Assembly: GCF_006715565.1 (NCBI RefSeq)
Contig: NZ_VFNL01000001.1
Coordinates: 744,001 to 808,000 of the forward strand
Direction of reading: 5' to 3'
Origin: Microbacterium sp. SLBN-154
Lineage (GTDB): Bacteria > Actinomycetota > Actinomycetes > Actinomycetales > Microbacteriaceae
DNA length: 64,000 nucleotides
Under the pieces are notes generated by a model that searched no databases, was not told the origin of the DNA, and worked only from the letters and a program-made list of their open reading frames with translations. How positions within the stretch are numbered: position 1 is the first letter of the stretch; the number at the start of each line of letters is the position of its first letter. Below, in pieces: positions 20,191-60,433 of the stretch. The position numbers and the translations under genes are program-made.

Positions 20191-20197
20191 TGTGAGC

Positions 20198-21476: not shown

Positions 21477-21519
21477 CGCGAACATTTCCCGCGAAGCAAG
21501 CGGGAAGGCAGGAGCCGGT

Positions 21520-22895: not shown

Positions 22896-22896
22896 C

Positions 22897-33047: not shown

Positions 33048-34358
33048 TTACTCACCCCACGCGGCATCCATCTCATCGAGCACCTGGTCGACGGTCTTCT
33101 GGCCGGTCAGCAGACCCTGCACACCCACACCGAGGGCGTTGTAGACGTCAGGGTTCGGCCACGTGGCGTTCGGGAGACCCGCGTAGTCGCCGTTCTCGAG
33201 CAGGTCGCCGATCGGGGAGTAGATCGGCAGCAGGTTGTCGGCCGTGGCGCCGGAGATCGACACGAAGCCCGACAGGTCGGCGAAGGCCTGCGACTCCTCG
33301 GGAGTGGCCAGCCAGTCGAGGAACTCCTGCGCGGAGGCCTTGACGGCGTCGTCGGCCGAGGCGTTGACGGCCCAGGCGTAGTTGGCCGAGGCCAGCGTGT
33401 AGGGCTCGCCGCCGTCCGCGGGCGGGAAGGCCTGGACGGTGAGGTCGAGACCGGTGCCGGCGCTGATCGACGACGCCGCCGAGCCGGGAACCGCCGCGGT
33501 GAGCGAGGACTGCGAGCCGATGCCCTGCGTGATCGAGTCGAAGGTGCCGCCCGCGACGCCGTCCTGGAAGCAGCCGCCCTCGTTCATCTCCACGATGTCC
33601 TCGAGCACGTCGCGCCATCCGCTGTCGGCGAAGGTCACATCGCCGGCGGCACGCTGCTCGTTCCAATCGGGGGTCTCGGCGTACACGCGCGTGGCGGAAA
33701 TCAGCATCGAGAACAGGCCGGTGTTGAAGGGAACGCTGCCGGCGAGCACGGTGAAGGTCTTGCCGCCGTCGCGCGCCGTCGTGCACGCCTCGAGCAGGTC
33801 TTCGTAGGTCTCGGGGTAGGCGTCGATGCCGACCTCTTCGCCGCCGGCGCCGTTGTAGATGAATCCGACGGGCACGAGGGCGGCCGGCTGTGCGTAGACG
33901 TCGCCGTCGAAGGAGTACTCCGCCTCGGTACCCGAGGGGATCGTCGCGGCGGAGGTCTCGTTGAGCGGCTCGAGGAAGCCCGCCTCGGCGAGGTTGACGA
34001 CCGAGATCGGCTGGCCCGTTCCGGGGGCGAGCACCATCATGTCGGCGGCGTTTCCGGCCTGCAGCTGCGTGGTGACCTGCGTGTTGTATGCGTCGGAGGG
34101 GTAGGGGATGACCTCGATCTCGACACCGGTCTGCTCGGTGTACTTCGCGGCGGTCTCGGCCCAGTAGTCGTCCTGGTCGTTGGCCTGCGCGACCATGAGG
34201 CTGAAGTTCGCCGAGGTCTCGTCGCCGGAGTCGCCTCCATCGTCGGAACCACCGCTGTCGGAACCGCCCCCCGAGCAACCCGCGAGGACGAGGGCGCCGG
34301 CGGCGCTCACAGCCAGGAGGGACCAACGGAGGCGCCGGATGTCGGAATGCTGTGACAT
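33048..34358 (-). CDS. Extracellular sugar-binding lipoprotein of an ABC transporter
   Basis: A 436-residue substrate-binding protein. The signal peptide (WSLLAVSAAGALVLAGC) ends in a lipobox with the lipidated C28, followed by a Ser/Gly-rich tether. ANFSLMVAQANDQDDYWAETAAKYTEQTGVEIEVIPYPSDAYNTQVTTQLQAGNAADMMVL is the cluster-B (carbohydrate) binding-protein fold. ATG 34358 has an AAAGG site; the longer frame lacks signal-peptide logic. The two permeases it should serve lie at 37909 and 38875, beyond the rhamnosidase gene and on the opposite strand. An inverted repeat at 34452-34470 lies upstream. Confidence 0.92.
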   Translation of the reverse strand: MSQHSDIRRLRWSLLAVSAAGALVLAGCSGGGSDSGGSDDGGDSGDETSANFSLMVAQANDQDDYWAETAAKYTEQTGVEIEVIPYPSDAYNTQVTTQLQAGNAADMMVLAPGTGQPISVVNLAEAGFLEPLNETSAATIPSGTEAEYSFDGDVYAQPAALVPVGFIYNGAGGEEVGIDAYPETYEDLLEACTTARDGGKTFTVLAGSVPFNTGLFSMLISATRVYAETPDWNEQRAAGDVTFADSGWRDVLEDIVEMNEGGCFQDGVAGGTFDSITQGIGSQSSLTAAVPGSAASSISAGTGLDLTVQAFPPADGGEPYTLASANYAWAVNASADDAVKASAQEFLDWLATPEESQAFADLSGFVSISGATADNLLPIYSPIGDLLENGDYAGLPNATWPNPDVYNALGVGVQGLLTGQKTVDQVLDEMDAAWGE

Positions 34359-34451
34359 GTCGACCTTTCGTGACGTCGTTGTCGCCAGTGCAGGACTGGC
34401 GCGGCTTCGGATCTGCCGCACCATCAGCCTGACACGATATGCCGCATTTCG

Positions 34452-39766: not shown

Positions 39767-40561
39767 GTGTATCAGCTCGCCCCCAACATCGAACTCCTCT
39801 TCACCGAGGCCGGTGACTACCACGACCGCGTCCGCGCGGCCGCGGCCGCCGGGTTCACCGCCGTCGAGATGTGGGGACCCACCGGTGTCGACGCCCCGGC
39901 ACAGCCGAAGGACCTCCCGGCGCTGAAGGCCGCGCTCGAAGAGACCGGAACGCAGCTGACCGCGCAGCTGTCGGAGCCGCGCACACAGTTCATGATCCCG
40001 CCGTGGGACCACAGCGAGTTCTTCCGCAAGCTCGACGAGGGCGTACAGATCGCCCAGGATCTGGGCTGCCCGCGCATCGTCGTGGGCAGCGGCACGGGAT
40101 TCGGCGGGTGGAAGCGCCAGGTGCAGCTGGACAAGCTCGTCGAGATCTACCAGAAGGCCATCGCGCAGATCGACGGCTCCGGTATCGCGCTCGTGCTCGA
40201 GCCGGTGAACGTCCGGGTCGATCACCCGGGATCGCTCCTGGACCGCACCGCCGAGGCGGTGTACGTCGCCCGGGGCGTCGACTCGCCTTTCTTCGGGGTG
40301 CTCTACGACATCTATCACTCCGCCGTCGAGGGCGAGGACATGGCAGCAGAGCTGGCGAACGCCGGCGACCTGGTGCAGTACGTGCAGCTGGCGGATGCCC
40401 CGGGCCGAGGTGAGCCCGGATCCGGCGACCTCGACTGGGCCGAGCGCCTGGGCATCCTGCGCGCGTCGGGCTACGACGGACCCATCGGCCTGGAGTACTA
40501 CCCGACCACCGAGTCCGCCGCCTCGGTGGCGCGGATCGTCGAGTGGGCAGCATCGGCATGA
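39767..40561 (+). CDS. Hydroxypyruvate isomerase-like TIM-barrel protein
   Basis: A 264-residue single-domain TIM barrel of the xylose isomerase-like/Hyi group. Metal-site carboxylates appear in ALVLEPVNV, FGVLYDIYHS and GLEYYPTTES. GTG 39767 has a CAGGAG site. It overlaps the GMC oxidoreductase start by 4 bases and follows the ABC permeases. In keto-sugar pathways such isomerases interconvert 2-keto and 3-keto forms; glyoxylate-type hydroxypyruvate isomerisation is less likely because no glyoxylate genes are nearby. Confidence 0.82.
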   Translation: MYQLAPNIELLFTEAGDYHDRVRAAAAAGFTAVEMWGPTGVDAPAQPKDLPALKAALEETGTQLTAQLSEPRTQFMIPPWDHSEFFRKLDEGVQIAQDLGCPRIVVGSGTGFGGWKRQVQLDKLVEIYQKAIAQIDGSGIALVLEPVNVRVDHPGSLLDRTAEAVYVARGVDSPFFGVLYDIYHSAVEGEDMAAELANAGDLVQYVQLADAPGRGEPGSGDLDWAERLGILRASGYDGPIGLEYYPTTESAASVARIVEWAASA

Positions 40562-42099
40562 CGCGGTACCCCTCCGAGGTCGATGTCGCCATCGTCGGCA
40601 GTGGTCCGACCGGCGCGGCGTACGCGCGCGTCCTCAGCGAGCAGGCGCCGAACGCGACGATCGCGATGTTCGAGGTGGGTCCCACGGTGTCCGACCCGCC
40701 GGGCGCGCACGTGAAGAACATCGCCGACCCCGAGGCGCGCGCTCGCGCGCAGGCGGCTTCGGAGGGCCCGGGCGCGCGCGGCGAGAAGGTGGCCAACCCC
40801 GGGCAGGCGAAGGCCGGCATGCGCGCGGCGCGACCGGGGACCTTCCTCCTCGAGGACGGTTTCCGCTTCGAGGGCGAGGACGGGATGCCGGTGGCGGCGA
40901 TGTCCAGCAACGTCGGCGGCATGGCGGCCCACTGGACCGGCGCCTGCCCCCGGCCGGGGGGCAGCGAGCGGATCGACTTCCTCCCTGACCTCGACGACCT
41001 GCTGACCGAGGCGGAGCGGCTCCTCGGCGTCACCACCGACGCGTTCGACGCCGCACCCTTCGGGCAGATCGTCCGAGATCGACTCTCCGTCGCCGTCGAC
41101 GACGGACGGACGGTCGAGACGAGGGTGCAGCGGATGCCGCTGGCCGCACACCGTCGCGACGACGGCCGGCTGGTGTGGTCGGGCTCGGATGTCGTCCTGG
41201 GCGACGTCACCCGCGACAACCTCGCCTTCGACCTTTTCGACGAATCACTCGTGACGCGGGTGCTGACCGAGGACGGTCACGCGACGGGCGTCGAGGTGCG
41301 GGATCTCCGGTCGGGGGAGACGCACCGGGTGGCGGCGCGGTTCGTCGTGGTCGCCGCCGACGCGCTGCGCACTCCGCAGGTGCTCTGGGCTTCCGGAATC
41401 CGTCCCCCCGCCCTCGGGCGCTACCTCAACGACCAGGCGCAGATCGTCTTCGCCTCGCGGCTGCGCGGCGTCGAGACCCTGGGCGCCGATGCGCCGACGA
41501 CAGGACTGGCGGAGTACAGCGGCGTCAGCTGGGTGCCGTTCACCGACGACGTCCCCTTCCATGGACAGGTCATGCAGCTCGACGCCTCGCCCATCCCCCT
41601 CGCCGACGACGATCCCGTCGTCCCCGGTTCGATCGTGGGTCTCGGGCTCTTCTGTGCCAAGGACCTCCAGGCCGACGACCGCGTCGAGTTCGACGACGCC
41701 GCGCACGACGCCTACGGCATGCCGGCACCGCGGATCCACTACCGGCTGACCGAGCGCGACCACGAGGTGGTCGACCGGGCTCGCGCCGAAATCGTGCGAC
41801 TCGGAGAGGCGATCGGCGACCCGCTGGACAGCCGGCCGTTCACCCTTCCACTCGGCTCCTCGCTGCACTACCAGGGGACGACCCGCATGGGTCGGACGGA
41901 TGACGGAACGAGTGTCTGCGGACCCGACAGCCAGGTGTGGGGTGTCGACGGACTCTTCGTCGCCGGCAACGGCGTGATTCCCACCGCGACCGCGTGCAAC
42001 CCCACGCTCACCTCCGTCGCTCTCGCGGTCGCCGGTGCGCGCAGCATCGCGCGTGCCCTGTCTCGCACGCCCGTCGCGGGGATCGCCAGTACTCCATGA
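40558..42099 (+). CDS. GMC-family FAD oxidoreductase (CarA/pyranose-oxidase-like glycoside 3-oxidase candidate)
   Basis: A 513-residue flavoprotein. The ADP-binding motif GSGPTG is at residues 14-19, the GMC loop AAMSSNVGGMAAHWTGACPRP near 114-134, and the His-Asn catalytic pair is H437 (LHYQGTTRMG) and N481 (ATACNPTLTS). Microbacterium CarA and relatives oxidise the C3 hydroxyl of a C-glucoside to give the 3-keto form needed by C-glycoside deglycosidases. This gene stands directly upstream of CGD-like beta and alpha genes, which makes that function likely. It is coupled to the isomerase gene (4-base overlap). No signal peptide. An oxidase for free sugars is the alternative. Confidence 0.82.
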   Translation: MTRYPSEVDVAIVGSGPTGAAYARVLSEQAPNATIAMFEVGPTVSDPPGAHVKNIADPEARARAQAASEGPGARGEKVANPGQAKAGMRAARPGTFLLEDGFRFEGEDGMPVAAMSSNVGGMAAHWTGACPRPGGSERIDFLPDLDDLLTEAERLLGVTTDAFDAAPFGQIVRDRLSVAVDDGRTVETRVQRMPLAAHRRDDGRLVWSGSDVVLGDVTRDNLAFDLFDESLVTRVLTEDGHATGVEVRDLRSGETHRVAARFVVVAADALRTPQVLWASGIRPPALGRYLNDQAQIVFASRLRGVETLGADAPTTGLAEYSGVSWVPFTDDVPFHGQVMQLDASPIPLADDDPVVPGSIVGLGLFCAKDLQADDRVEFDDAAHDAYGMPAPRIHYRLTERDHEVVDRARAEIVRLGEAIGDPLDSRPFTLPLGSSLHYQGTTRMGRTDDGTSVCGPDSQVWGVDGLFVAGNGVIPTATACNPTLTSVALAVAGARSIARALSRTPVAGIASTP

Positions 42100-42101
42100 C
42101 C

Positions 42102-42170
42102 GCGAGAATCCAACGGCGCGCCGAGAGTGCGGGTGAACCCCGCGTCCTCGGCGCCCCGTTGCATTCTCGC
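42102..42170. terminator. Large inverted repeat after the GMC gene
   Basis: Arms of 24 bases (42102-42125 and 42147-42170) match at 22 positions, and the loop itself holds GCGGG-N5-CCCGC. No T-run follows, so it may be a factor-assisted terminator or an mRNA-stabilising hairpin between the oxidase operon and the deglycosidase operon. Confidence 0.65.
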
Positions 42171-42203
42171 CGGCACCGGGCGAAGCGAGAAGGCCGCGAG
42201 GCA

Positions 42204-42233
42204 TTGACTTATGTTGGAAAACAACGTTAAAGT
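42204..42233 (+). promoter_or_regulatory. Promoter and operator of the deglycosidase operon
   Basis: TTGACT (42204-42209) and TAAAGT (42228-42233) are separated by 18 bases. The spacer holds GTTG-GAAAA-CAAC, an inverted repeat that extends to ATGTTG/CAACGT with one mismatch, and the CTTATGT box (42208-42214). An operator in the spacer implies repression. The GTG at 42290 follows. Confidence 0.65.
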
Positions 42234-42289
42234 GTAGGAATTATGACAAAGACGTCGGCGGCGCTGGCCGCCCCCACGAGGAGGTTCGC

Positions 42290-42691
42290 GTGATCCCCGA
42301 TCGAATCATCGAGCAGGGCACGCTCACGTCGCGCGACGGCCGCGTCGCCGTCGAGGTGCGACTGCCCTGGTATCGCGCGCTGCCGGGATCGTGCATCGCC
42401 GGCGCGACGCTCACCGTCGACGGCGTCGAGGCGCCGGCCGCCTCGCTCCGCTGGCGGATGAACGGCAGCGAGTTCACGTTCGACGAGCTGAAGACCAATA
42501 CCGACGAGTGGTGGTTCCCCACCGACTCCGCCGTCCTGTCCGGCGCGCTCGAGCTCGCCGGCGGCGAGCACGAGGTCAGCGTCGAGCTCGTCCTCTACAT
42601 CCCGTACATCGTCATCTCCGACGACGAGGTGCTCCACATCGAGGAGCGCGACACGAAGAAGATGGCCGTCCGACAGGAGGTCTCGGCATGA
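42290..42691 (+). CDS. C-glycoside deglycosidase beta subunit-like (DUF6379-type)
   Basis: A 133-residue soluble protein with the compact beta-sandwich pattern of CGD beta subunits: VAVEVRLPWYRALPGSCIAGATLTVDGVEAPA, RMNGSEFTFDELKTNTDEWWFPTDSAVL and EHEVSVELVLYIPYIV. GTG 42290 has a GAGGAGG site. The stop overlaps the alpha-type gene by 4 bases, so the two are made together. In known CGDs the beta subunit shapes the active site at the alpha-subunit barrel mouth. Family assignment is from motif memory. Confidence 0.82.
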   Translation: MIPDRIIEQGTLTSRDGRVAVEVRLPWYRALPGSCIAGATLTVDGVEAPAASLRWRMNGSEFTFDELKTNTDEWWFPTDSAVLSGALELAGGEHEVSVELVLYIPYIVISDDEVLHIEERDTKKMAVRQEVSA

Positions 42692-43794
42692 CCGCCACAG
42701 CGAAGGGCACGCCGATCCAGGGCGTCACCCTCTACAGCTTCACCCGCGCATTCCACGGGCGCGAGTACGACCTCGAGCAGCTGATCCGCAAGGTCGCCGC
42801 CGAGGGGTACGGTCCGGGGCTGGAGATCATCGGGTTCTCCAGCTTCCGCGGATTCCCCGAGATCGACGACGCCTACGCGGCATCCTTCTCCGACCTGGTC
42901 GACGAGGTCGGACTCGTCCGCACCTCGCTCGCGGTCAACGCCGACATCGGCATCCACCGCGACCGCCTTCTGAACCAGGACGAGCTGCTGGAGTACATGC
43001 GCCGCCAGATCCAGGCCGCTGCCAAGCTCGGCTTCCCCGTCGCCCGCGTGCAGATCTCGATTACGCCCGATTCCATGGAGGCGCTCGCGCCGATCGCCGA
43101 GGAGTACGGGGTGACCCTCGCGCTCGAGGTGCACGCCGACCAGTACGCCTCACATCCCCGCATCCTCGCCCTCCGCGACCGCTACGAGAAGGTCGGCTCC
43201 CCGTTCCTCGGCTTCACGATGGATTGGGGCGCCACGGTCAGCGGGTTCGCGCCGTCGCTCATCGAGGCCTATCGCCGTCGCGGCGCGTCGGAGGAGCTGC
43301 TCGCCGCCGTCGTCCAGCTCTGGGACGACTTCTACGAGCAGGGACCCCCGGCCGATCAGGCCGAGCACGGCCAGCGATTCGGCCGCTTCATCGGTCTCGC
43401 CCACCAGTACGGCCGCCCCGACCTCGGCATCGACTTCGGCATCAACGGCACGGGCCTGTTCGGTCCCGCACGGGTGGACGACTGGCTGGAGATCTTCCCG
43501 TGGATCCGCCACGTGCACGGCAAGTTCTTCGGGATCGACGAGAACCATCAGGAGCCGTCCGTGCCGGTCGCCGAGCTCACCACGCTGCTGGTCGAGAACG
43601 GCTACAGCGGTGCCATCTCGAGCGAGTACGAGGGCTGGCACTGGAACCACTGGCAGAGCCCGTTCGAGATCATCCGCGATGAGCAGGCCCTTCAGCGCGC
43701 GGCCGCCGAGGCAGCGGGCTCCCGAATGATCACGGATGCCGCGGAGGCCCGCCGCATCCTCGATTCCCACCTCGCGCACGCCGTGCGCTCCTGA
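42688..43794 (+). CDS. C-glycoside deglycosidase alpha subunit-like TIM-barrel protein
   Basis: A 368-residue sugar isomerase-type barrel beginning GVTLYSFTRAFHGREYDLEQLIRK. Metal ligands are seen as E in LALEVHADQ, D in LGFTMDWGAT, H in RHVHGKFFGID and E in AISSEYEGWHW. It is translated from ATG 42688 inside the stop of the beta-type gene, the arrangement of characterised alpha-beta CGD pairs. The expected reaction is release of an aglycone from a 3-keto-glycoside with formation of an unsaturated keto-sugar. It differs clearly from the paralogue at 43805, suggesting a different substrate. Confidence 0.82.
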   Translation: MTATAKGTPIQGVTLYSFTRAFHGREYDLEQLIRKVAAEGYGPGLEIIGFSSFRGFPEIDDAYAASFSDLVDEVGLVRTSLAVNADIGIHRDRLLNQDELLEYMRRQIQAAAKLGFPVARVQISITPDSMEALAPIAEEYGVTLALEVHADQYASHPRILALRDRYEKVGSPFLGFTMDWGATVSGFAPSLIEAYRRRGASEELLAAVVQLWDDFYEQGPPADQAEHGQRFGRFIGLAHQYGRPDLGIDFGINGTGLFGPARVDDWLEIFPWIRHVHGKFFGIDENHQEPSVPVAELTTLLVENGYSGAISSEYEGWHWNHWQSPFEIIRDEQALQRAAAEAAGSRMITDAAEARRILDSHLAHAVRS

Positions 43795-43804
43795 GAGGAC
43801 GACG

Positions 43805-44875
43805 ATGACCCTTCGACAGGCTCAGAACAGACCCGACGGTATCGCCGGAACCGGCATCAAGCTCGGCACCACCCTGTATTCGATGACGAGCGAGTTCGCC
43901 GCGGGCCTGTACACGCCCGAGACGCTCATCAAGGCCGTCCACGATGAGGGCATCGGCCCGGGTGTGGAGTTCAACATCGCGCAGCTGCTGCGCACGTACC
44001 CCGACGTCGATCAGGAGTTCGTGAAGCTCTGGTTCGATTCGCTGGAGAAGTACGGACTGGAGGCCAGCGCCGTCGGCACGAACCTCGACATGGGGCGCCG
44101 CAAGGACCGCGACATGACCCCCGACGAGGAGCACGACTTCCTCGCCCGGCAGCTCAAGACGGCGCACACGCTGGGCTTCAAGAGGGTGGTCATCCGCTCG
44201 CACGGCAAGGAGCTGCTGCGCGGTCTCCTGCCGCTCGCCGAGAAGTACGACCAGTACCTCGGCTACGAGATCCACGCGCCGTCGGGGCCGAACAACCCGC
44301 AGGTGCTGCAGATGCGCGAGATGTACGACGAGCTGCAGTCCGAGCGCCTCGGCTTCACCGCCGACTTCTCATCGACGATGCACTCGCTTTCGCCGACGCT
44401 GCTGACCACGCTCGCGCGCATGGGGATGGACGAGAAGCACTTCCCCGTCATGGACGAGATCTGGCACGAGCCCACCCCGATGCACGTGCGAAACCAGAAG
44501 TTCGAGGACTACCTGGTCGGCGAGGGCGTCGACCCGCTCACCTTCGGCCCGTTCACGAGGCTCGCCTTCAACATGCACGGGCTCGTGCCGCCGGAGGAGT
44601 GGCTGGACATCATGCCCCAGATGTTCCACGTGCACGCCAAGTTCTACGACATCGGCGCCGACGGTGAGGAGCCGGCGATGGACATCCCACGCATCGTGAA
44701 GCAGTTCGTCGTGGGGGGCTACCAGGGGTATCTCTCCAGCGAGTGGGAGGGACACGCCTTCCAGGACCTCGGCGAGGCCGACCCCATCGATCTCGTGAAG
44801 AAGCAGCATGCGCTCATGCGCAAAGCCATCGAAGACACCGTCGCCGAGCAGTCGAGGGAGACCGCGAATGTCTGA
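43805..44875 (+). CDS. C-glycoside deglycosidase alpha subunit-like TIM-barrel protein (second)
   Basis: A 356-residue barrel with the full metal set: E155 (GYEIHAP), D187 (GFTADFSST), H277 (HVHAKFYD) and E313 (LSSEWEGHAF). The NLDMGRRKDRDMTPDEE loop (93-109) is shared with the fusion at 26332, whose N-terminus resembles the separate beta-type protein at 45657; by that logic 43805 and 45657 are partners. The first ten residues come from a dispersed repeat (CCTTCGACAGGCTCAG) and are not part of the fold; ATG 43805 follows the previous gene by 10 bases. It overlaps the SnoaL-like gene by 8 bases. Confidence 0.84.
   Translation: MTLRQAQNRPDGIAGTGIKLGTTLYSMTSEFAAGLYTPETLIKAVHDEGIGPGVEFNIAQLLRTYPDVDQEFVKLWFDSLEKYGLEASAVGTNLDMGRRKDRDMTPDEEHDFLARQLKTAHTLGFKRVVIRSHGKELLRGLLPLAEKYDQYLGYEIHAPSGPNNPQVLQMREMYDELQSERLGFTADFSSTMHSLSPTLLTTLARMGMDEKHFPVMDEIWHEPTPMHVRNQKFEDYLVGEGVDPLTFGPFTRLAFNMHGLVPPEEWLDIMPQMFHVHAKFYDIGADGEEPAMDIPRIVKQFVVGGYQGYLSSEWEGHAFQDLGEADPIDLVKKQHALMRKAIEDTVAEQSRETANV
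43807..43828. repeat. CCTTCGACAGGCTCAG repeat inside a gene start
   Basis: This is a variant of the CCCTTCGACAAGCTCAGGG element dispersed in many high-GC genomes. Here it covers codons 2-8 of the alpha-type gene; read on the other strand it gives the telltale LSLSKG peptide. Confidence 0.75.
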
Positions 44876-45647
44876 CACCACCACTGTCTCGGTCGGCGAG
44901 CTCGCCGCCGAGCTCGCCGCTCTCCGCGAGGAGGTCGTCGCCGCCCGCGCTCTTGCGCAGCGCGCCGAGGATCGCGGACAGGTCGAGAACCTGTTCAACC
45001 GCTACATGTACCTCCACAACGCCTTCGAGGACGAGCAGATCATCCCGCTGTGGGTGAAGGAGGGCACCGAGGGCATCCGGGCCCGCTACACCAACGCCGG
45101 TCAGTACACGACGTGGCAGAGCGTCACCGACTACCACCGCGGTCGGCCCCACCCCGAGGGCAAGCTCATCCTGCACGCGACGACGACCCCCGTCATCGAG
45201 GTCGCCGCCGACGGCAAGACCGCCAAGGGCGTGTGGTTGATGGCAGGCACCGAGTCGGGTCTGACCGACCCGAAGGTCGCCGAGGCCTTCCCCGACATGT
45301 ACTCCCCCGAAGAGGTGCTCGGCAAGAAGGTCTGGGCGCACTGGGTGTGGTGCAAGTACGCCATCGACTTCCTCAAGCAGGACGGCGAGTGGAAGTTCTG
45401 GAAGTTCCGCTGCTACGAGCTCGCCCGCGCGCCCTTCGAGGAGAACTGGGTGAGCTTCGGTCTGAAGAACCAGGGCGCGTTCGACCTCGACCTCATGTAC
45501 TTCGGCGACGACGGCAAGCCCGTCTTCATGCCGCCCGCCGACGAGCCCGTGCCGTCGACCAACCACCCCTACAGCCCCGAGACGGTGCAGAAGCTCGAGC
45601 CGGCCCCGCCGGTTCCGCATGACACCTTCACCGACACCTACGCCTGA
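44868..45647 (+). CDS. SnoaL-like/NTF2-fold protein with coiled N-terminus
   Basis: A 259-residue soluble protein. Residues 8-40 are a Glu/Ala-rich heptad-like helix (GELAAELAALREEVVAARALAQRAED), followed by a cone-shaped SnoaL_4/NTF2-like domain (QVENLFNRYMYLHNAFEDEQIIPLWV, then TTTPVIEVAADGKTAKGVWLMAG and WAHWVWCKYAIDFLKQDGEWKFWKFRCYE). Such folds serve dehydratases, cyclases and hydrolases. It lies between a CGD-alpha-like and a CGD-beta-like gene in one overlapping operon, so it probably acts on the keto-sugar or aglycone. The exact reaction is unknown. Confidence 0.78.
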   Translation: MSDTTTVSVGELAAELAALREEVVAARALAQRAEDRGQVENLFNRYMYLHNAFEDEQIIPLWVKEGTEGIRARYTNAGQYTTWQSVTDYHRGRPHPEGKLILHATTTPVIEVAADGKTAKGVWLMAGTESGLTDPKVAEAFPDMYSPEEVLGKKVWAHWVWCKYAIDFLKQDGEWKFWKFRCYELARAPFEENWVSFGLKNQGAFDLDLMYFGDDGKPVFMPPADEPVPSTNHPYSPETVQKLEPAPPVPHDTFTDTYA

Positions 45648-45656
45648 GGAACGACC

Positions 45657-46073
45657 ATGGCAACGCACGACTCGCTCTTCCGCGACGACGACGTCCGTCG
45701 CACCGACGACGGCCTCGCCGTCTCGCTGCAGATCCCCTGGTACCGGAGCCTCTGGCTCTCCGCGGTCGACGACGTCGCCGCGACGGTCAACGGTGTCGAG
45801 GTCCCCACAGAGGACCTGCGCTTCGTCCTCGAGGGACGCGAATACCGCATCGAGGAGCTCCCCGAGCAGTGGGACACCCTCTGGTTCGTCGCCGAGCGCC
45901 CCGACGTCCGCATCCGCCTCGACGACCCGCCGGCCGCCGGCGAGAAGATCACCGTCGGGGTGGTGCTCACCATGCGCCTGCTCTACATGCAGATCATGCC
46001 GGGCGTGGACGGCGGACCTGGCCGGTACGTGACCAACCGTGTGCCTGTGGAACGGGAGCTGGTGCTCGCATGA
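45657..46073 (+). CDS. C-glycoside deglycosidase beta subunit-like (DUF6379-type), second
   Basis: A 138-residue protein matching the N-terminal domain of the fusion at 26332 in order and wording: SLQIPWYRSLWLSAVDDVAATVNGVEVP, EELPEQWDTLWFVAERP, TMRLLYMQIMPGVDGGPGRYV. I infer it partners the alpha-type protein at 43805, from which it is separated by the SnoaL-like gene. ATG 45657 lies 9 bases after the previous stop; the end overlaps the Gfo/Idh gene (ATGA). Confidence 0.83.
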   Translation: MATHDSLFRDDDVRRTDDGLAVSLQIPWYRSLWLSAVDDVAATVNGVEVPTEDLRFVLEGREYRIEELPEQWDTLWFVAERPDVRIRLDDPPAAGEKITVGVVLTMRLLYMQIMPGVDGGPGRYVTNRVPVERELVLA

Positions 46074-47323
46074 CCAGCTCTCGCTCGTTGAGCGAGCGTA
46101 GCGAGACCCGGTCGTTGAGCGAGCGTAGCGAGACGAAACGCCCGCTCCGCGTCGCGATGATCGGCTACGGCTTCATGGGCGCGGCGCACTCGGTCGGCTG
46201 GCGCCAAGCGCCGCGCGTGTTCTCGCTTCCCGAGGCCGTCGAGATGGCCGTCGTCGTCGGTCGCAACGCCGAGGCGGTGGCCGATGCCGCGGCCCAGTGG
46301 GGCTGGCAGGAATGGGCGACCAATTGGCGCGAGGTCATCGCGCGGGACGACATCGACATCGTCGACATCGTCACGCCCGGTGACTCGCACGCCGAGATCG
46401 CGATCGCCGCTTTGGAGGCCGGCAAGCACGTCCTCTGCGAGAAGCCGTTGGCCAATACGGTGGCCGAGGCCGAAGCGATGGCGGATGCCGCCGAGCGCGC
46501 GTCTGCGCGCGGAGTGCGCGCGATGGTGGGGTTCACCTATCGGCGCGTGCCCGCGGTCACCCTCATGCGCGACATGATCGTCGAGGGCGCGGTGGGCACC
46601 GTGCAGCAGGTGCGCGCGGCCTACCGGCAGGACTGGCTCGTCGACCCTGCGATGCCGCTGGCCTGGCGGCTGCAGAAGGAGCACGCGGGCTCGGGTGCGC
46701 TCGGTGACATCGGCGCGCACATCATCGACATGACCCAGTTCGTCACAGGACAGACGGTGGAGCGAGTGAGCGGCACCCTCGAGACGATCGTGAAGGAGCG
46801 ACCGCTGCAGGCAGCCGGCTCGGGGCTCAGCGGCGAGGCCGGTGTCGGAACGGGCACGGTGACCGTCGACGACCTGGCGATCTTCACCGGCCGGCTCTCG
46901 GGCGGATCGCTGGCCTCGTTCGAGGCGACGCGTTTCGCGACGGGCCGGAAGAACGCCCTGACCGTGGAAGTCTCGGGGGATCGGGGAGCGCTCGCGTTCG
47001 ACCTCGAAGACCTCAACAGCCTGCGGTTCTACGACCGCACCGCGCCCGAGGGGCGACAGGGCTTCACCCAGATCCTCGTCACCGAGTCGGTGCACCCGTA
47101 TGTGGCCGCATGGTGGCCGGCAGGCCACATGCTCGGCTACGAGCACGGCTTCAGCCACCAGGTGGTCGACCTCGTCACCGCGATCGCCGAGGGCACCGAC
47201 CCGCACCCGACCTTCGCTGAGGGACTCAGCGTGCAGCGCGTGCTCGACGCGGTCGAGCGGTCGAGCGCGAACGACGCCGCGTGGACACCGGTCGCCGCCG
47301 ACGTCCTCGTCCCCGGTCGTTGA
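46070..47323 (+). CDS. Gfo/Idh/MocA-family NAD(P) oxidoreductase with repeat-derived N-terminus
   Basis: A 417-residue sugar dehydrogenase-type protein. The Rossmann motif VAMIGYGFMGAAHSVGW is at about residues 27-43, CEKPLANTVAEAEAM holds the conserved EKP, and the C-terminal half is the substrate-binding sheet (GDIGAHIIDMTQF with the conserved H). Before the Rossmann fold are about 23 residues encoded by two copies of a dispersed DNA repeat (SLSERSET twice). The ATG overlaps the beta-type stop, and a start nearer the fold would remove strand 1, so the extension is probably translated. The stop TGA also lies in a repeat copy. It may oxidise or reduce the glycoside or keto-sugar. Confidence 0.85.
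   Translation: MTSSRSLSERSETRSLSERSETKRPLRVAMIGYGFMGAAHSVGWRQAPRVFSLPEAVEMAVVVGRNAEAVADAAAQWGWQEWATNWREVIARDDIDIVDIVTPGDSHAEIAIAALEAGKHVLCEKPLANTVAEAEAMADAAERASARGVRAMVGFTYRRVPAVTLMRDMIVEGAVGTVQQVRAAYRQDWLVDPAMPLAWRLQKEHAGSGALGDIGAHIIDMTQFVTGQTVERVSGTLETIVKERPLQAAGSGLSGEAGVGTGTVTVDDLAIFTGRLSGGSLASFEATRFATGRKNALTVEVSGDRGALAFDLEDLNSLRFYDRTAPEGRQGFTQILVTESVHPYVAAWWPAGHMLGYEHGFSHQVVDLVTAIAEGTDPHPTFAEGLSVQRVLDAVERSSANDAAWTPVAADVLVPGR
46084..46144 (+). repeat. Two tandem dispersed repeats inside coding sequence
   Basis: CGTTGAGCGAGCGTAGCGAG occurs at about 46086 and again at about 46113, with the second followed by ACGAAACGCCCG. They encode the N-terminal extension of the Gfo/Idh protein. Related copies are at 24845 and 47313-47441. 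Confidence 0.85.
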
Positions 47324-47441: not shown

Positions 47442-47464
47442 AAATTCACGAAGGAGTCAATGAG

Positions 47465-48472
47465 ATGGCACGTCCGATCACGTTGTTCACCGGCCAGTGG
47501 GCGGATCTTCCGTTCGAGGAGGTGGCGCGTTTGGCGGGCGAGTGGGGGTACGACGGGTTGGAGATCGCCTGCTGGGGCGATCACCTGGATGTGTCCCGGT
47601 GGGATGACGCGGAGTACGTCCAGTCGCGGAAGGACATCCTGGAGCGCAACGGGCTGAGGGTGTGGGCGATCTCGAATCACCTCACCGGTCAGGCGGTGTG
47701 CGACGACCCGATCGACCAGCGGCACCGCGACATCCTCTCCGACCGGGTGTGGGGCGACGGCGACCCCGAGGGTGTGCGCCGGCGGGCGGCGGAAGACCTC
47801 AAAGACACCGCGCGGATGGCGGCGAAGCTGGGTGTGACGCAGGTGAACGGGTTCACCGGGTCATCCATCTGGAAAGCCGTCGCCATGTTCCCGCCCGCCT
47901 CGGAGGAGTGGATCGACGCCGGCTACCAGGACTTCGCCGACCGGTGGCATCCGATCCTCGACGTCTTCGAGGAGGAGGGCGTGCGGTTCGGGCTCGAGGT
48001 GCACCCGTCCGAGATCGCGTACGACTACTGGACGGCCAAGCGGACGCTCGAGGCGATCGGCCACCGGAAGAGCTTCGGCCTCAACTTCGACCCGTCGCAT
48101 TTCATGTGGCAGCAGCTGGATCCGGTCGCCTTCGTGCTCGACTTCGCCGACCACATCTTCCACGTGCACGTGAAGGAGTCGGTCACCAACCTGGACGGGC
48201 GCAACGGCGTGCTCGGCTCGCACCTGGGGTGGGCGAACCCGCGCCGCGGCTGGACGTTCGTCTCGACCGGTCACGGCGCGGTGCCGTGGGAGCCGATCTT
48301 CCGCGCTCTGAACGCGATCGGCTATGACGGGCCCACCAGCGTCGAATGGGAGGACGCCGGGATGGACCGCCTCATCGGCGCGCCCGAAGCCCTGCAGTTC
48401 GTGCGCACGCTCAACGCCATCACCCCGCCCGCCGCGGCTTTCGACGCCGCGTTCTCCACCAAGGCGGATTGA
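47465..48472 (+). CDS. Sugar phosphate isomerase/epimerase-type TIM-barrel protein
   Basis: A 335-residue xylose isomerase-like barrel beginning [39 protein letters not shown]. Metal-site candidates are E in [15 protein letters not shown] in [12 protein letters not shown] in FHVHVKES and E in [12 protein letters not shown] 47465 has a GAAGGAG site; the frame is open upstream but that part is repeat DNA. It is followed 3 bases later by a ThuA gene, a pairing usual in keto-disaccharide and keto-glycoside degradation. It is more distant from CGD alpha than the other barrels here. Confidence 0.85.
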
Positions 48473-48475
48473 CTC

Positions 48476-49348
48476 GTGACCGACATCCTCAACGTCCTCA
48501 TCCTCTCGGGCCATATGACCCGCGAGCACGACAACGAGCATCGCAGCTTCCGGTTGCACAACCAGTGGATCACGACGCTGCTCGAAGACACCGGCCGCTT
48601 CAAGGTGCGCGTCGTGGAGGATCCGCGAGGGCTCGGCGCCGAGGTCATCGACAAGTACGACGTGCTGATCGTCGTCTTCGAGGGTCGCGACGGCTTCTTC
48701 GAGAAGGCCGTCGGGTTCGGCGCGGAGACGGACGCCGCGATCCTGAGGTTCGTCCACGACGACGGAAAGGGCATCGTCTGGTTCCACGGGTCGGCCGCGC
48801 AGGAGGACCGCTGGGGCTATCCCGAGGAGTACAACGTCATGCGCGGGGCGAAGCTCAGCGCGTACGAGACGGGTCTTCGTCCTCGCCCGTGGGGTGAGGC
48901 GCAGCTCGATACGGTCGAGCCGCGGCATCCGATCACCGAGGGGATCAGCGCCCGCTGGACTGTGACCGGTGACGACATCCTCACCGGCGTCGACCTGTAC
49001 GAGGGTGCCCAGGTGCTGTTGACGACCTTCGACGATCTCGAGGCGTACGAGAAGGCACCGGTGTGGCCGATGTCGCACTACCCGGTCGAGATCCCCGAGG
49101 GGGGCATCGCCGCACTCAACGGCATGAACACCGACCAGCCGATCGCCTGGATCAACGAGTACGGTGCAGGCCGGTCGTTCACGATCACGATCGGACACGA
49201 TATCGACACGTTCCGGCGCATCGAATTCATCCGCATGTTCCCGCGCGGCGTCGAGTGGGCGGCCACGGGAGAGGTCACCCTCACGGGCCCCGACCGCCGT
49301 GGCGAGCGTCGCTTCCTCCCCTGGCCGTACTACAACCGCGAGGGCTGA
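48476..49348 (+). CDS. ThuA-like domain protein
   Basis: A 290-residue protein of the class I glutamine amidotransferase-like ThuA family, which helps degrade 3-keto-disaccharides such as 3-ketotrehalose. ILNVLILSGHMTREHDNEHRS opens the fold, KGIVWFHGSAAQEDRWGYPEEYNVMRG and HPITEGISARW follow, and AYEKAPVWPMSHYP plus ARSFTITIGHDIDTFRRIEF-like C-terminal segments are typical. There is no catalytic cysteine in the amidotransferase position, as expected. GTG 48476 lies 3 bases after the isomerase stop. Its presence supports a 3-keto-sugar intermediate. Confidence 0.87.
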   Translation: MTDILNVLILSGHMTREHDNEHRSFRLHNQWITTLLEDTGRFKVRVVEDPRGLGAEVIDKYDVLIVVFEGRDGFFEKAVGFGAETDAAILRFVHDDGKGIVWFHGSAAQEDRWGYPEEYNVMRGAKLSAYETGLRPRPWGEAQLDTVEPRHPITEGISARWTVTGDDILTGVDLYEGAQVLLTTFDDLEAYEKAPVWPMSHYPVEIPEGGIAALNGMNTDQPIAWINEYGAGRSFTITIGHDIDTFRRIEFIRMFPRGVEWAATGEVTLTGPDRRGERRFLPWPYYNREG

Positions 49349-52540: not shown

Positions 52541-53545
52541 TCACGCCGCGCCGAGCGCCTCGCGCGCCCCGGCGATGTGGTCCCTCGTCATCTGGGCGGG
52601 GTCGGAGTCGAGCCACTCGTGCCCGCCCCATTCGCTGGTGAGGACCCCGTCGAACCCTGTCGTCGCGAGCACGGCTCCGAGGTCGCGCACCGGCTGCCAC
52701 ACCCGGCCGTCGGCATCCTCGAGATCCCAGAACTTCAGATGGAACCCACTCACCAGGGGCAGGACCGGACGGATGGCATCGACCGACGACCGCCCGAACC
52801 GCACGATCATGTCCATGTACAACGTGTGGACCGGCTCCGGAACGCCGCCCGAACGAAGGACGTCCACGATCGCGGGCAGCGTCGCCGGATTGCGCCAGTC
52901 GTCACGCACCCGCTCGATCAGCGAGCCCGGCACACCTCCGCGCTCGAGCTCGTCGAGGTAGCTCACCGGCACCGCGGGCATGAGCATGCTGATGTCGATG
53001 AGCAGCCGCACATGGGGATCGTCCAGCTCGGCGATCACCTCGTACGCGCCCGCCGACGAAGGAGAGTCCGGCGTCTGCGACCCCTGCGCCTCTTCGAACA
53101 GCACGAGGTCGAGCTCATGGAGGAGGGGCTGGAGCCGCCGGAGAAGGCCCGGTCCCGCCTGGCCGATCGGCAGGCGCAGACCGACGGCGCCGAGCGCATG
53201 TGCGGCATGCAGCTGCGGTGCGAGGAACTCCAGGCGCTCCTCCTCCGTGCGACGCCGCGTCGGCGACATCCACTCATCCAGGCTGGCGCCGACGATGCTG
53301 ACCCGCCCCCCGGCCGCTGCGAGGCGGTCACGCAGGAGGGCGGCCTCATCGGTGCGGGTGACGGGGAACGACCGCCACAGCTGGCCGGGTTCGATCTCGA
53401 TGACCGGGCTCACGCGGTCGGCGACGATGTCCACGGCGATGGAGGTCGCGGCGCGCTCGGCCCGGATGACCTCGGGGGTCCAGTTGAAGGCGCTCGCCCC
53501 GATCACACGACGCGGAAGGGCGGATGCTGCGGCGTCAGGCAACAT
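52541..53545 (-). CDS. C-glycoside deglycosidase alpha-like TIM-barrel protein (divergent)
   Basis: A 334-residue barrel. Metal-site residues align with the other CGD-alpha-type proteins: E in LVLFEEAQGS, D in RLLIDISMLMP, H in GFHLKFWDLED and E in LTSEWGGHEW. The N-terminus is shorter and the LYSF segment is replaced by IGASAFNWTPEVIRAERAATSIAVDIVADR. ATG 53545 overlaps the beta-type gene upstream by 11 bases, giving a beta-alpha order like 42290/42688. It is probably a lyase for a different keto-glycoside. Confidence 0.75.
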   Translation of the reverse strand: MLPDAAASALPRRVIGASAFNWTPEVIRAERAATSIAVDIVADRVSPVIEIEPGQLWRSFPVTRTDEAALLRDRLAAAGGRVSIVGASLDEWMSPTRRRTEEERLEFLAPQLHAAHALGAVGLRLPIGQAGPGLLRRLQPLLHELDLVLFEEAQGSQTPDSPSSAGAYEVIAELDDPHVRLLIDISMLMPAVPVSYLDELERGGVPGSLIERVRDDWRNPATLPAIVDVLRSGGVPEPVHTLYMDMIVRFGRSSVDAIRPVLPLVSGFHLKFWDLEDADGRVWQPVRDLGAVLATTGFDGVLTSEWGGHEWLDSDPAQMTRDHIAGAREALGAA

Positions 53546-53945
53546 CGCGTGACACCGTCCCCGTGGCAGGCGCATCCAGGAGAAGGGTGCGCGCGGAGGC
53601 GAACGGGAGGCTGAGTGGACCGTCGGCGCCCGCGTCGAGGTACGGCACGATCAGCCGGAATCCGAGCGTCACCGCATGAGCGCCGGGTGCCAGCATCCGT
53701 CGCCCTTCGAGTCGGAGCCGATCCTGCACGAACCACCAGCCGCGCTCGAAGGCGAGGGCGGAGGGGGCGACGCGGCGATCGCCGACCCCCACGGCCGACA
53801 CCGCGACGGGATCGCCGTCGACGGACAGTTCCCACCCGCCCGCGCTCCACACCGGCAGCGACCTGATCCAGGGGAGCGAGACTCGGAGGCTGAAGCCTTC
53901 GTCGGTGGAGCGCAGGGCGTCGTCGCGCAGGATGGGCAGACTCAT
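53535..53945 (-). CDS. C-glycoside deglycosidase beta-like protein (third)
   Basis: A 136-residue protein with the same strand pattern as the other beta-type proteins: FSLRVSLPWIRSLPVWSAGGWELSVDG, ALAFERGWWFVQDRLRL and AVTLGFRLIVPYL. The TNT/DTL-WWF element is reduced to RGWWFVQD. It lies between the ROK gene (53 bases upstream, same strand) and the alpha-type gene. Sequence similarity to the other beta-type proteins is weaker, so confidence is lower. Confidence 0.68.
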   Translation of the reverse strand: MSLPILRDDALRSTDEGFSLRVSLPWIRSLPVWSAGGWELSVDGDPVAVSAVGVGDRRVAPSALAFERGWWFVQDRLRLEGRRMLAPGAHAVTLGFRLIVPYLDAGADGPLSLPFASARTLLLDAPATGTVSRDVA

Positions 53946-53998: not shown

Positions 53999-55261
53999 TC
54001 AGGTAAAAGTAATGCGAGCGCTCGTGGGTCGCCCGTCCGCGAACCACCGGGCGAAAGTGACCTCGAAGAGCTGCTCGCGCGCGAGCTCGGCCCCGCCTCG
54101 AAGGGGTGCGTTGGGGTCGTTGACTGACTGCACGATCTCGAGGTCGCGCGTGGCGAGCGGCAGGGAGAGCTCGTACACCCGCTGTCGCACCTCGGCTAGG
54201 TAGAGCTCGCCGGCCGAGGCGACCGCCCCGCCGATCACGATGATGCCCGGGTTGAAGACGTTGACCAGCGTAGCGATGGAGCCCCCCACCACCCGTGCCG
54301 AGGCCTGGAGGAGCGAGATGGCCAGCGCGTCCCCATCCTCGGCCGCCAGGGAGATCGTCTCGGCGCTGAGGTCCTCGGGCGACAGGCGGCTCGCCTCGCC
54401 CGCCTCGATGCGCGCCTGCGCCTCGCGCACGAGCGCCCAGCCGCCGGCGACGGCCTCGAGGCACCCGATCTTGCCGCACCGGCAGGGGGCGTCGGATTCC
54501 GGAACGCGCACGTGCCCGATGTCGCCGGCCGAGCCGTTCGCGCCGCGGTGGATCCTTCCGCGCGAGAGCAGGCCCGCCCCGATCCCCGTGCCGATCTTGA
54601 TGTAGACGAGGTCGGCGTGGTGGCGGTGCCGTTCGGCGCGCTCGCCGAGGGCGAGGAGATTCACGTCGTTGTCGACCCAGATGGGCGCGTCGAAGCGCTG
54701 CTCGAAACGTCGCCGGATGTCGAACCCGTTCCACCCCGGCATGATCGGCGGGGCGACAGGGCGACCGGTCTCGAAATCGACCGGACCCGGCACACCGACG
54801 GCGACCGACCAGACCGGGGCGTCGCCGGTGCGTTCGAGAACCTCGTCGACCATGCTCATGACGACGTCGAGGGTGTCGGCGGGGCCACGGGAGATCTCCC
54901 ACGACCGGTGCACCTCGGCGAGCACGTCGCCGTCGAGGGCGGCGACGCCCACGTGGATGTGCAGCGCGCCGAGTGCGCAGACGATGATGCGGCCCTGGTC
55001 GGCGCGGAAGTGGAGGGTGCGGGGGGCTCGGCCGCCCGACGACGGGCCGAAATCGCCGTCGGCCAGGAAACCCATCTCGATCGCCTGGTCGACACGCTGC
55101 GTGACGACGCCGCGACCGAGTCCGGTGATGCGTCCGATCTCGGGGCGGGTTGTCGCTTCCCCGGTCCGGACGAGGTTCACGATGCGCAGCAGGCTGGTGA
55201 CCTCGTCGGTCTGCGCCGCGAAACGTAGGGTGCTGTCTCTTGCCACGCTCGATTCTGACAC
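53999..55261 (-). CDS. ROK-family transcriptional regulator
   Basis: A 420-residue repressor. The N-terminal winged helix (VTSLLRIVNLVRTGEATTRPEIGRITGLGRGVVTQRVDQAIEMGFL) precedes a ROK sugar-kinase-like domain with GVPGPVDFETGR, VYIKIGTGIGAGLL and the zinc motif CRCGKIGCLEA. Such proteins sense sugars or glycosides. GTG 55261 is the likely start. It is divergent from the Gfo/Idh gene at 55371 and leads the beta-alpha pair downstream, so it probably regulates both. The effector may be the keto-sugar. Confidence 0.93.
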   Translation of the reverse strand: MSESSVARDSTLRFAAQTDEVTSLLRIVNLVRTGEATTRPEIGRITGLGRGVVTQRVDQAIEMGFLADGDFGPSSGGRAPRTLHFRADQGRIIVCALGALHIHVGVAALDGDVLAEVHRSWEISRGPADTLDVVMSMVDEVLERTGDAPVWSVAVGVPGPVDFETGRPVAPPIMPGWNGFDIRRRFEQRFDAPIWVDNDVNLLALGERAERHRHHADLVYIKIGTGIGAGLLSRGRIHRGANGSAGDIGHVRVPESDAPCRCGKIGCLEAVAGGWALVREAQARIEAGEASRLSPEDLSAETISLAAEDGDALAISLLQASARVVGGSIATLVNVFNPGIIVIGGAVASAGELYLAEVRQRVYELSLPLATRDLEIVQSVNDPNAPLRGGAELAREQLFEVTFARWFADGRPTSARITFT

Positions 55262-57263: not shown

Positions 57264-57333
57264 CGCTAATCGACCGATAGTGGATCTGGGCGCCGAAGTC
57301 ACACGCCCCCAGGGCTTTTTGAAAGGGTCGAAG

Positions 57334-58344: not shown

Positions 58345-58415
58345 TCCGTGCTCGATTCCCGGGGCGGCCGATGACCGGCCGCCCCGGGCACCACGTCAGG
58401 ATTCGAGGAGGACTC

Positions 58416-60397: not shown

Positions 60398-60433
60398 GCG
60401 ACACGCACACCCACAGAACAGGGAGGTTCTGAA

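What the first reader, a model, noticed from the sequence alone, without database searches (positions are those of the whole stretch)
40558..46073. Candidate C-glycoside deglycosidase operon with two alpha and two beta genes behind a GMC 3-oxidase
Seen: a GMC oxidoreductase with His437-Asn481, then overlapping beta-type (42290), alpha-type (42688), alpha-type (43805), SnoaL-like (44868), beta-type (45657) and Gfo/Idh (46070) genes. Known: Microbacterium CarA oxidises C3 of a C-glucoside and alpha-beta CGD complexes then cleave the C-C bond. Inferred: this locus degrades one or more C- or O-glycosides through 3-keto intermediates, with two alpha-beta complexes of different specificity.
Basis: partly seen in the sequence, partly recalled or inferred. 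Interest (0 to 1): 0.9.

Follow-up and report, generated by a model that had tools for sequence, protein, structure and literature searches.

The report
Bacterial gene cluster cutting plant C-glycosides
A soil bacterium, probably a Microbacterium, carries an already published type of gene cluster that oxidises and then cuts the tough carbon-carbon bond between sugars and plant pigments, together with three further enzyme sets of the same fold, one of which lacks the residues known to do the cutting and so probably does something else.

Summary
Observation confirmed at the stated coordinates: a GMC oxidase (His437/Asn481), then beta, alpha, alpha, SnoaL-like, beta and Gfo/Idh genes. The oxidase is closest to PsG3Ox/MtCarA; alpha 43805 and beta 45657 match crystallised AgCGD2; alpha 42688 carries the C6-type signature. 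All known metal and catalytic residues are present.

Beyond the coordinates the window has three more CGD-type sets. Two are single-chain beta-alpha fusions, the first matching solved Microbacterium testaceum CGD 8QRZ. The third, 52541-53945 (-), keeps the five metal ligands, but His149 is Gln and Glu307 Gly in every relative aligned, and beta Tyr39 is Ile in all but two divergent ones. It occurs in 41 of 44 same-genus genomes with CGD genes and 0 of 154 without. I found no description of it. By the known mechanism it should not cleave C-C bonds; it may be a keto-C-glycoside isomerase or epimerase. The given finding is a new member of a known kind; that pair is its open part.

The parts
39767..40561 (+). 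Xylose-isomerase-like TIM barrel (hydroxypyruvate-isomerase-like, 'HPI'); first gene of the syntenic unit; role inferred (handling of the released keto-sugar)
   Evidence: Pfam PF01261 134 bits; TIGR03234 157 bits, below its cut-off of 353; a hit in 72 of 77 named loci
40558..42099 (+). GMC-family glycoside/C-glycoside 3-oxidase, His437-Asn481
   Evidence: PsG3Ox 7qf8 848 bits, MtCarA 7dve 793 bits; residues
42290..42691 (+). CGD beta subunit 1 (b1), Tyr39 equivalent present
   Evidence: Pfam CGDB 65 bits; best PDB match AgCarC2, 47 bits; Tyr in 77 of 77 b1 hits
42688..43794 (+). CGD alpha subunit 1 (a1), C6-type signature (Met249 to Gly, shortened 241-242 loop)
   Evidence: 7dnm_A 190 bits; alignment; Gly 75 and Ala 2 of 77 aligned hits
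43805..44875 (+). CGD alpha subunit 2 (a2), orthologue of AgCGD2 alpha
   Evidence: 7dnm_A 614 bits; all metal and catalytic residues
44868..45647 (+). SnoaL_4-domain protein; accessory, no hit in 19 of the 75 named loci that have both a2 and b2
   Evidence: Pfam SnoaL_4 60 bits; AF2 model of low confidence
45657..46073 (+). CGD beta subunit 2 (b2), orthologue of AgCarC2, partner of a2
   Evidence: 7dnm_B 188 bits; 14-108 bases from a2 in the 19 loci without SnoaL
46070..47323 (+). Gfo/Idh/MocA oxidoreductase, levoglucosan-dehydrogenase-like; inferred 3-keto-glucose reductase or glycoside 3-dehydrogenase
   Evidence: NF052479 357 bits, cut-off 650
47462..48472 (+). IolE-like TIM barrel; inferred hydratase of 2-hydroxy-3-keto-glucal
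   Evidence: Pfam PF01261 152 bits; a hit in 65 of 77 named loci; role inferred from LgdB/AtHYD analogues
48476..49348 (+). ThuA-domain protein
   Evidence: Pfam PF06283 98 bits; a hit in 53 of 77 named loci
52541..53545 (-). Divergent CGD-like alpha (a5): metal ligands kept, His149 to Gln, Glu307 to Gly. Likely start at 53545 (longest ORF starts 53575)
53535..53945 (-). Divergent CGD-like beta (b5): Tyr39 to Ile; no Pfam match at E 0.001 for the window copy; overlaps a5 by about 11 bases
53999..55261 (-). ROK-family protein, possible regulator, next to b5
   Evidence: Pfam ROK 194 bits; a hit in 56 of 77 named loci
25020..26321 (+). Single-chain CGD (f1), beta fused to alpha; Gln at the His269 metal position
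   Evidence: 8qrz/8un2 787 bits, named M. testaceum CGD; CGDB + AP_endonuc_2; Gln in 15 of 15 aligned hits
26332..27816 (+). Second single-chain CGD (f2), AgCGD2-like beta fused to alpha; likely start 26332 (longest ORF starts 26203)
   Evidence: 7dnm_A 429 bits and 7dnm_B 102 bits in one frame; start read
33048..34424 (-). ABC-type sugar-binding protein, uptake (inferred)
   Evidence: Pfam SBP_bac_8 90 bits
37909..39711 (+). Two ABC permease-like genes upstream of the operon
   Evidence: Read as permeases from the translations, no family search run on them; a hit to each in 64 of 77 named loci

Best explanation
This is an actinobacterial C-glycoside catabolic operon of the CarA/PsG3Ox type. 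The GMC oxidase oxidises the glucosyl C3-OH of a plant C-glycoside (and some O-glycosides) with O2. Two metal-dependent CGD heterodimers, b1a1 (C6-type) and b2a2 (AgCGD2, C8-type), then eliminate the aglycone, His149 acting at C2 and beta Tyr39 activating the aglycone. The released 2-hydroxy-3-keto-glucal is hydrated by one of the neighbouring TIM-barrel proteins and reduced to glucose by the Gfo/Idh protein. Shown here by sequence: families, residues, pairing and synteny. Inferred from characterised relatives: each reaction, the C6/C8 split and the downstream hydration and reduction.
For: Close matches: GMC to 7qf8/7dve, a2/b2 to AgCGD2 7dnm A/B at 614/188 bits. Metal ligands E147, D179, H269, K271, E305, catalytic H149 and E307, and beta Tyr39 are present in a1/b1 and a2/b2 and fixed in the relatives aligned, apart from one a2 copy in L097. 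C6 versus C8 signature at position 249: Gly/Ala in 77 of 77 aligned a1 hits, Met in 79 of 79 aligned a2 hits, read with PMC8563793 (passages). Synteny with the published P. siccitolerans 4J27 cluster (L082; PMC10646112 passages). Pairing of a2 with b2: 14-108 bases apart in the 19 of 75 loci that have no SnoaL hit. Ring-cleavage genes in the same window (pobA-, pcaH-, pcaB-, pcaI-, pcaF-like).
Against: No activity, expression or substrate data for this strain. b2 has six residues in the loop beside the aglycone that AgCarC2 lacks, so orientin-type C8 specificity may not carry over. PurA also acts on O-glycosides (PMC12724307, Discussion), so the oxidase alone does not prove C-glycosides. Hydratase and reductase assignments are by analogy only; the Gfo/Idh protein misses the levoglucosan-dehydrogenase cut-off (357 of 650 bits).
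Confidence: 0.86

Rival explanations
1. The operon mainly serves O-glycosides such as rutin-like rhamnoglucosides: the neighbouring GH106 rhamnosidase trims, the oxidase makes 3-keto-O-glycosides, and the CGD complexes eliminate the aglycone oxygen; C-glycosides are incidental.
For: GH106 (731 bits) and GH43 (264 bits) and a GH35/42-like gene beside the island; PuCGE also cleaves 3-keto-phlorizin (PMC10628242 section 12); PurA is active on O-glycosides (PMC12724307).
Against: Both beta subunits keep Tyr39, whose Phe mutant in PuCGE loses about 1.2x10^4-fold on C-glycosides but only 2.4-fold on an O-glycoside, so its retention (77 of 77 b1, 79 of 79 aligned b2 hits) points to C-glycosides. GH106 gave a hit in 16 of 77 named loci, four of them only 25% identical; since it lies near the edge of the 10 kb flanks, some may be cut off.
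Confidence: 0.1
2. A levoglucosan or free-sugar pathway built from LGDH-like, LgdB-like and isomerase-like parts.
For: Gfo/Idh protein 357 bits to levoglucosan dehydrogenase; several PF01261 proteins as in levoglucosan loci (PMC10066097, passages).
Against: Below the equivalog cut-off of 650; the GMC C-glycoside oxidase and two aglycone-binding beta subunits have no place in that pathway.
Confidence: 0.03

Closest known systems
psg3ox with PsCGD_B1, B2, C1, C2 of Pseudarthrobacter siccitolerans 4J27 (PMC10646112, passages incl. legend of Fig. 1d)
   Same: GMC 3-oxidase plus two alpha and two beta CGD genes; L082, a contig of that strain, has HPI-GMC-b1-a1-a2-SnoaL-b2-Gfo-IolE in the window's order, and also a5, b5, ROK and the second Gfo/Idh gene
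   Different: Window proteins HPI to IolE are 66-80% identical; b5 is on the other strand from a5 in L082; the passages read speak of four CGD proteins and do not mention the a5/b5 pair
AgCGD2 (AgCarB2/AgCarC2), Arthrobacter globiformis, PDB 7DNM/7DNN
   Same: a2 and b2 are orthologues with every metal and catalytic residue
   Different: six-residue insertion in the b2 loop near the aglycone; a SnoaL gene between the subunit genes in the window
MiCGD/AgCGD1/MtCGD (CarBC, C6-type)
   Same: a1/b1 share the small residue at 249 and the shortened 241-242 loop described for these enzymes
   Different: their sequences were not at hand, so there was no direct comparison
Microbacterium testaceum single-chain CGD, PDB 8QRZ/8UN2
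   Same: f1: full-length match, 787 bits, including Gln at the His269 position
   Different: not identical in sequence; no other difference looked for
a5/b5 compared with the solved CGDs
   Different: Base His, supporting Glu and beta Tyr all replaced; 24% identical to 7dnm_A in that structural alignment

Membership tests
C-glycoside 3-oxidase (CarA / G3Ox, GMC) | GMC domains and closer to characterised C-glycoside oxidases than to pyranose 2-oxidases | tested here: met
   848 bits to PsG3Ox and 793 to MtCarA; chains named pyranose 2-oxidase at most 110 bits; two chains named only pyranose oxidase 442 (8qve) and 209 (9fl2) bits
C-glycoside 3-oxidase (CarA / G3Ox, GMC) | catalytic His/Asn pair (H440/N484 in PsG3Ox) | tested here: met
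   His437/Asn481
C-glycoside 3-oxidase (CarA / G3Ox, GMC) | C3 oxidation of a C-glycoside | not testable with these tools
   needs an enzyme assay
CGD alpha (a1, a2) | metal ligands E147, D179, H269, K271, E305 and catalytic H149, E307 (AgCGD2 numbering) | tested here: met
CGD beta (b1, b2) | PF19906 above cut-off and Tyr39 equivalent | tested here: met
   65 and 56 bits against 27.6; Tyr present
CGD alpha/beta (a1b1, a2b2) | C-C cleaving activity of the complex | not testable with these tools
   needs an enzyme assay
CGD (a5/b5 pair) | CGD fold, alpha with beta | tested here: met
CGD (a5/b5 pair) | metal ligands | tested here: met
   E, D, H, K, E in 120 of the 120 listed homologues (678 found)
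CGD (a5/b5 pair) | catalytic His149 and Glu307 | tested here: not met
   Gln and Gly in 120 of 120 and in 78 of 78 and 79 of 79 aligned locus hits
CGD (a5/b5 pair) | beta Tyr39 | tested here: not met
   Ile in 59 of 59 fused homologues and 74 of 74 aligned locus hits; but Tyr in the nearest beta beside two divergent alphas (L108, L109)
CGD (a5/b5 pair) | PF19906 match of the beta | tested here: not met
   window b5 has no Pfam match at E 0.001; some fused relatives do match PF19906, so the family sits at the edge of the model
Levoglucosan dehydrogenase (Gfo/Idh 46070) | NF052479 equivalog cut-off 650 bits | tested here: not met
   357 bits

The most novel reading that the evidence does not exclude
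The a5/b5 complex (52541-53945) is a separate, undescribed functional class on the CGD scaffold. It recognises the aglycone of a keto-C-glycoside through its beta partner but does not cut the C-C bond. With the base His, its supporting Glu and the aglycone-activating Tyr gone and the metal site intact, it would use the two metal-bound Glu residues as a proton shuttle, as tagatose/allulose 3-epimerases do (mechanism recalled), and as may the 3-keto-glucoside 4-epimerase YcjR. It would either turn dead-end 2-keto-C-glycosides back into the 3-keto form, or epimerise keto-C-glycosides (for example galactosyl to glucosyl), so that the other four CGD sets can cleave them.
Probability: 0.33. Interest if true: 0.72.

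Novelty: new member of a known kind. Interest (0 to 1): 0.42.

Why it matters
C-glycosides resist ordinary glycosidases, and enzymes that make or break them are wanted for food and drug chemistry. The operon itself adds one more source of known enzymes, with a clear prediction of a C6-type and a C8-type complex plus two natural single-chain versions. The fifth pair matters more: a conserved companion of this pathway that keeps the CGD fold and metal but lacks the residues now thought to cleave the bond gives a natural test of the proposed mechanism. If it is an isomerase or epimerase, it would explain how soil bacteria deal with 2-keto by-products or non-glucose C-glycosides that CGDs cannot use.

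Tried and rejected
1. Novelty of the two-alpha/two-beta layout: rejected; published for P. siccitolerans and syntenic in named genomes.

2. Novelty of beta-alpha fusions: largely rejected; f1 matches the solved M. testaceum CGD. The nearest solved chains to f2 are the separate AgCGD2 subunits; 8qrz is a more distant fusion (91 bits).

3. SnoaL protein as an essential CGD component: not supported; no hit in 19 of 75 loci with a2 and b2, and in the M. mangrovi locus (L052; same contig as L110) a hit in L110 covers only 84 bases. Its AF2 model was too weak (pLDDT 60.5), so I made no fold search with it; PDB sequence hits were weak (25 bits).

4. a5 as a mere degenerate copy: unlikely, because residues are fixed across relatives and it co-occurs with CGD genes. 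Control against over-reading: of 27 alignment columns fixed in the four other alpha families, 11 are kept and 11 have another majority residue in a5 (the remaining 5 fall between), so the clade is divergent as a whole and the catalytic changes are not the only ones; the metal site is spared.

5. a5/b5 as a canonical eliminase: disfavoured. The His-to-Ala mutants kept 10.4% (PuCGD) and 1.8% (MiCGD) activity; beta Y39F lost about 1.2x10^4-fold on C-glycosides. Against me: the Glu-to-Ala mutant of PuCGD kept 49.8% (MiCGD 1.9%), so loss of that Glu alone need not be fatal, and another residue could serve as base.

6. a5/b5 as the glycal hydratase: possible, but the IolE-like and HPI-like proteins are better candidates and the retained beta subunit suggests an aglycone-bearing substrate (inference).

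7. Other results against the a5/b5 reading: beta Tyr stands beside the two divergent alphas in L108 and L109; 3 of 44 CGD-positive genus genomes (G044, G100, G167) and 5 of 17 family genomes (G242, G252, G270, G366, G383) lack a5 at the thresholds used. a5 comes in two pieces in G019 and G091 and G420, and with one in-frame stop in G204. In the tree each alpha group is separate, but the join of a5 with a2/f2 is weak (86/60) and the tool warned of long branches meeting. One a2 copy (L097, the contig of which L112 is also a part) reads R/T/T at three active-site columns in a stretch where several genes give two HSPs, so it may be decayed or error-rich.

8. Literature on a5/b5: nothing seen. The CGD-related searches were (listings; on YcjR gave no pertinent paper, on PDB codes none). 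Of papers I saw: PMC8563793 sections 8 and 12 and passages; PMC10646112 abstract and passages; PMC10628242 section 12 and passages; PMC12724307 abstract and Discussion; PMC13273386 the first of three parts; PMC10066097, PMC10807413 and PMC12141560 passages. Only open-licence PMC papers are held, and supplements were not readable, so absence from print is not shown.


Full report
OBSERVATION. ORFs lie at 40543/40558-42099 (GMC), 42290-42691, 42688-43794, 43805-44875, 44868-45647, 45657-46073 and 46070-47323, all + strand (some of these frames are open further upstream). The GMC start at 40558 overlaps the preceding gene (39767-40561) by four bases, which favours it over 40543. Pfam assigns GMC_oxred, CGDB, AP_endonuc_2 twice, SnoaL_4, CGDB and GFO_IDH_MocA in that order. 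His437 and Asn481 are at those positions and match H440/N484 of PsG3Ox, whose alanine variants are inactive (PMC10646112, passages). Gaps between genes from 39767 to ThuA run from -8 to +190 bases. A search of the window's genome with PF19906 gave four hits, all inside the window.

WHAT THE FINDING IS. The oxidase matches PsG3Ox (7qf8) at 848 bits and MtCarA (7dve) at 793. Alpha 43805 matches AgCGD2 alpha (7dnm_A) at 614 bits over 337 residues, and beta 45657 matches AgCarC2 at 188 bits; in the 19 of 75 named loci without a SnoaL hit the two genes lie 14-108 bases apart, so they are partners. Alpha 42688 is more distant (190 bits), overlaps beta 42290 by four bases, and has Gly where AgCGD2 has Met249 plus a six-column gap around residues 241-242. 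PMC8563793 (passages) names these two features among those that separate the C6-acting MiCGD, AgCGD1 and MtCGD from AgCGD2. Position 249 is Gly or Ala in 77 of 77 aligned a1 hits and Met in 79 of 79 aligned a2 hits. I therefore predict b1a1 to be C6-type and b2a2 C8-type; the six extra residues in the b2 loop are a caution.

MECHANISM. Shown elsewhere for relatives: G3Ox makes the 3-keto-glycoside (PMC10646112 abstract); CGDs cleave it with a metal held by E147, D179, H269, K271 and E305, His149 as base and Glu307 in support (PMC8563793, passages; section 12); PuCGE releases 2-hydroxy-3-keto-glucal (PMC13273386, first part) and needs beta Tyr39 for C- but hardly for O-glycosides (PMC10628242 section 12); the glycal is hydrated and reduced by neighbours in analogous operons. 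The window's a1/b1 and a2/b2 have every one of these residues. Which neighbour hydrates and which reduces is inference.

PRIOR ART. The same layout is in print. PMC10646112 (passages) describes psg3ox with two CarB-like and two CarC-like genes downstream in P. siccitolerans 4J27. A contig of that strain came up as L082, and its order HPI-GMC-b1-a1-a2-SnoaL-b2-Gfo-IolE matches the window. In all, 66 of 77 named loci keep HPI-GMC-b1-a1-a2-(SnoaL)-b2-Gfo on one strand; several of the other 11 are short contigs.

BEYOND THE COORDINATES. The window has three further CGD-type sets. f1 (25020-26321) is one chain with CGDB and AP_endonuc_2; it matches 8qrz at 787 bits over its whole length, and names that entry Microbacterium testaceum C-glucosyl deglycosidase. 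It has Gln at the His269 metal position, as do 8qrz and 15 of 15 aligned hits. f2 (26332-27816) is also one chain and resembles AgCGD2. The fifth set is a5/b5 on the minus strand, 52541-53945, next to a ROK-family gene and a second Gfo/Idh gene; b5 ends about 11 bases inside a5.

CO-OCCURRENCE. In the genus sample (198 genomes, the window's included) a5 scoring at least 250 bits is in 41 of 44 genomes with CGDB and in 0 of 154 without (Fisher p 2.6e-39; genomes are related, so p overstates). In the family sample (E at most 1e-30; the window's genome again included) it is in 12 of 17 with CGDB, two of them divergent (34-35% identical), and in 0 of 232 without. Among the 77 named loci it has a hit within the fetched flanks in 58. 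It is thus part of the same catabolic region, not a stray relative.

READING OF THE FIFTH PAIR. By published mutants, loss of the base His and of beta Tyr39 should cripple C-C cleavage; loss of the supporting Glu alone was milder in PuCGD (49.8% kept). The statement that Tyr39 is conserved in the known CGEs makes the pair an exception. Because metal and beta partner are kept, an aglycone-bearing keto-sugar is still the likely ligand. The 3-keto-nothofagin made by oxidation drifts to the 2-keto form, which PuCGE does not use, so a 2-keto/3-keto isomerase would have a job here; a C4 or C2 epimerase is an alternative suggested by the fold's epimerase relatives. That the two metal-bound Glu are the proton shuttle in those epimerases is recalled, not from a call. 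I put this at one in three.

CONTEXT. The window also encodes a 4-hydroxybenzoate 3-monooxygenase (NF006091 subfamily, 495 bits, over its cut-off of 351), protocatechuate 3,4-dioxygenase beta (339 bits, over 296), a pcaB-like lyase (below cut-off), a 3-oxoacid CoA-transferase and a 3-oxoadipyl-CoA-thiolase-like protein upstream, and a catechol 2,3-dioxygenase-like protein downstream, plus GH106 and GH43 glycosidases and a sugar-binding protein. This fits uptake, deglycosylation and ring cleavage of plant polyphenols, as an inference.

VERDICT. Observation confirmed, interpretation supported, layout already known. I rate the finding as a new member of a known kind, and the a5/b5 pair, judged alone, as a new variant of a known kind with an open function.

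Noticed in passing
window 52541-53945 (-): Fifth CGD-like alpha/beta pair with all five metal ligands but Gln, Gly and Ile in place of three residues needed for C-C cleavage; conserved in relatives, often as one fused chain, and annotated as 'restriction endonuclease subunit R' in several records.
   Followed up: yes
window 25020-26321 and 26332-27816 (+): Two tandem single-chain beta-alpha CGDs; the first has Gln instead of His269 among the metal ligands, as in 8qrz.
   Followed up: partly
window 44868-45647 (+): SnoaL_4 protein lies between the two subunit genes of one heterodimer; 56 of 75 named loci with both subunits have a hit to it and 19 have none; function unknown.
   Followed up: partly
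window 12680-24066: Protocatechuate branch genes (pobA-, pcaH-, pcaB-, pcaI-, pcaF-like) next to the deglycosylation island, suggesting one polyphenol catabolic region.
   Followed up: partly
window 57280-63581 (+): Possible meta-cleavage cluster: catechol 2,3-dioxygenase-like, cyclase, FAD monooxygenase-like, amidohydrolase and fumarylacetoacetase-like genes.
   Followed up: partly
L024 (record titled Stenotrophomonas maltophilia P13) and L058 (Planococcus sp. APC 4015): Contigs with a2 94% and 88% identical to the window under distant organism names; perhaps actinobacterial contamination or mislabelled records.
   Followed up: no
L097 / L112 (Microbacterium elymi KUDC0405; G091): Several island genes give two adjoining or overlapping HSPs and a2 reads differently at three active-site columns; looks like a decayed or error-rich copy.
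   Followed up: no
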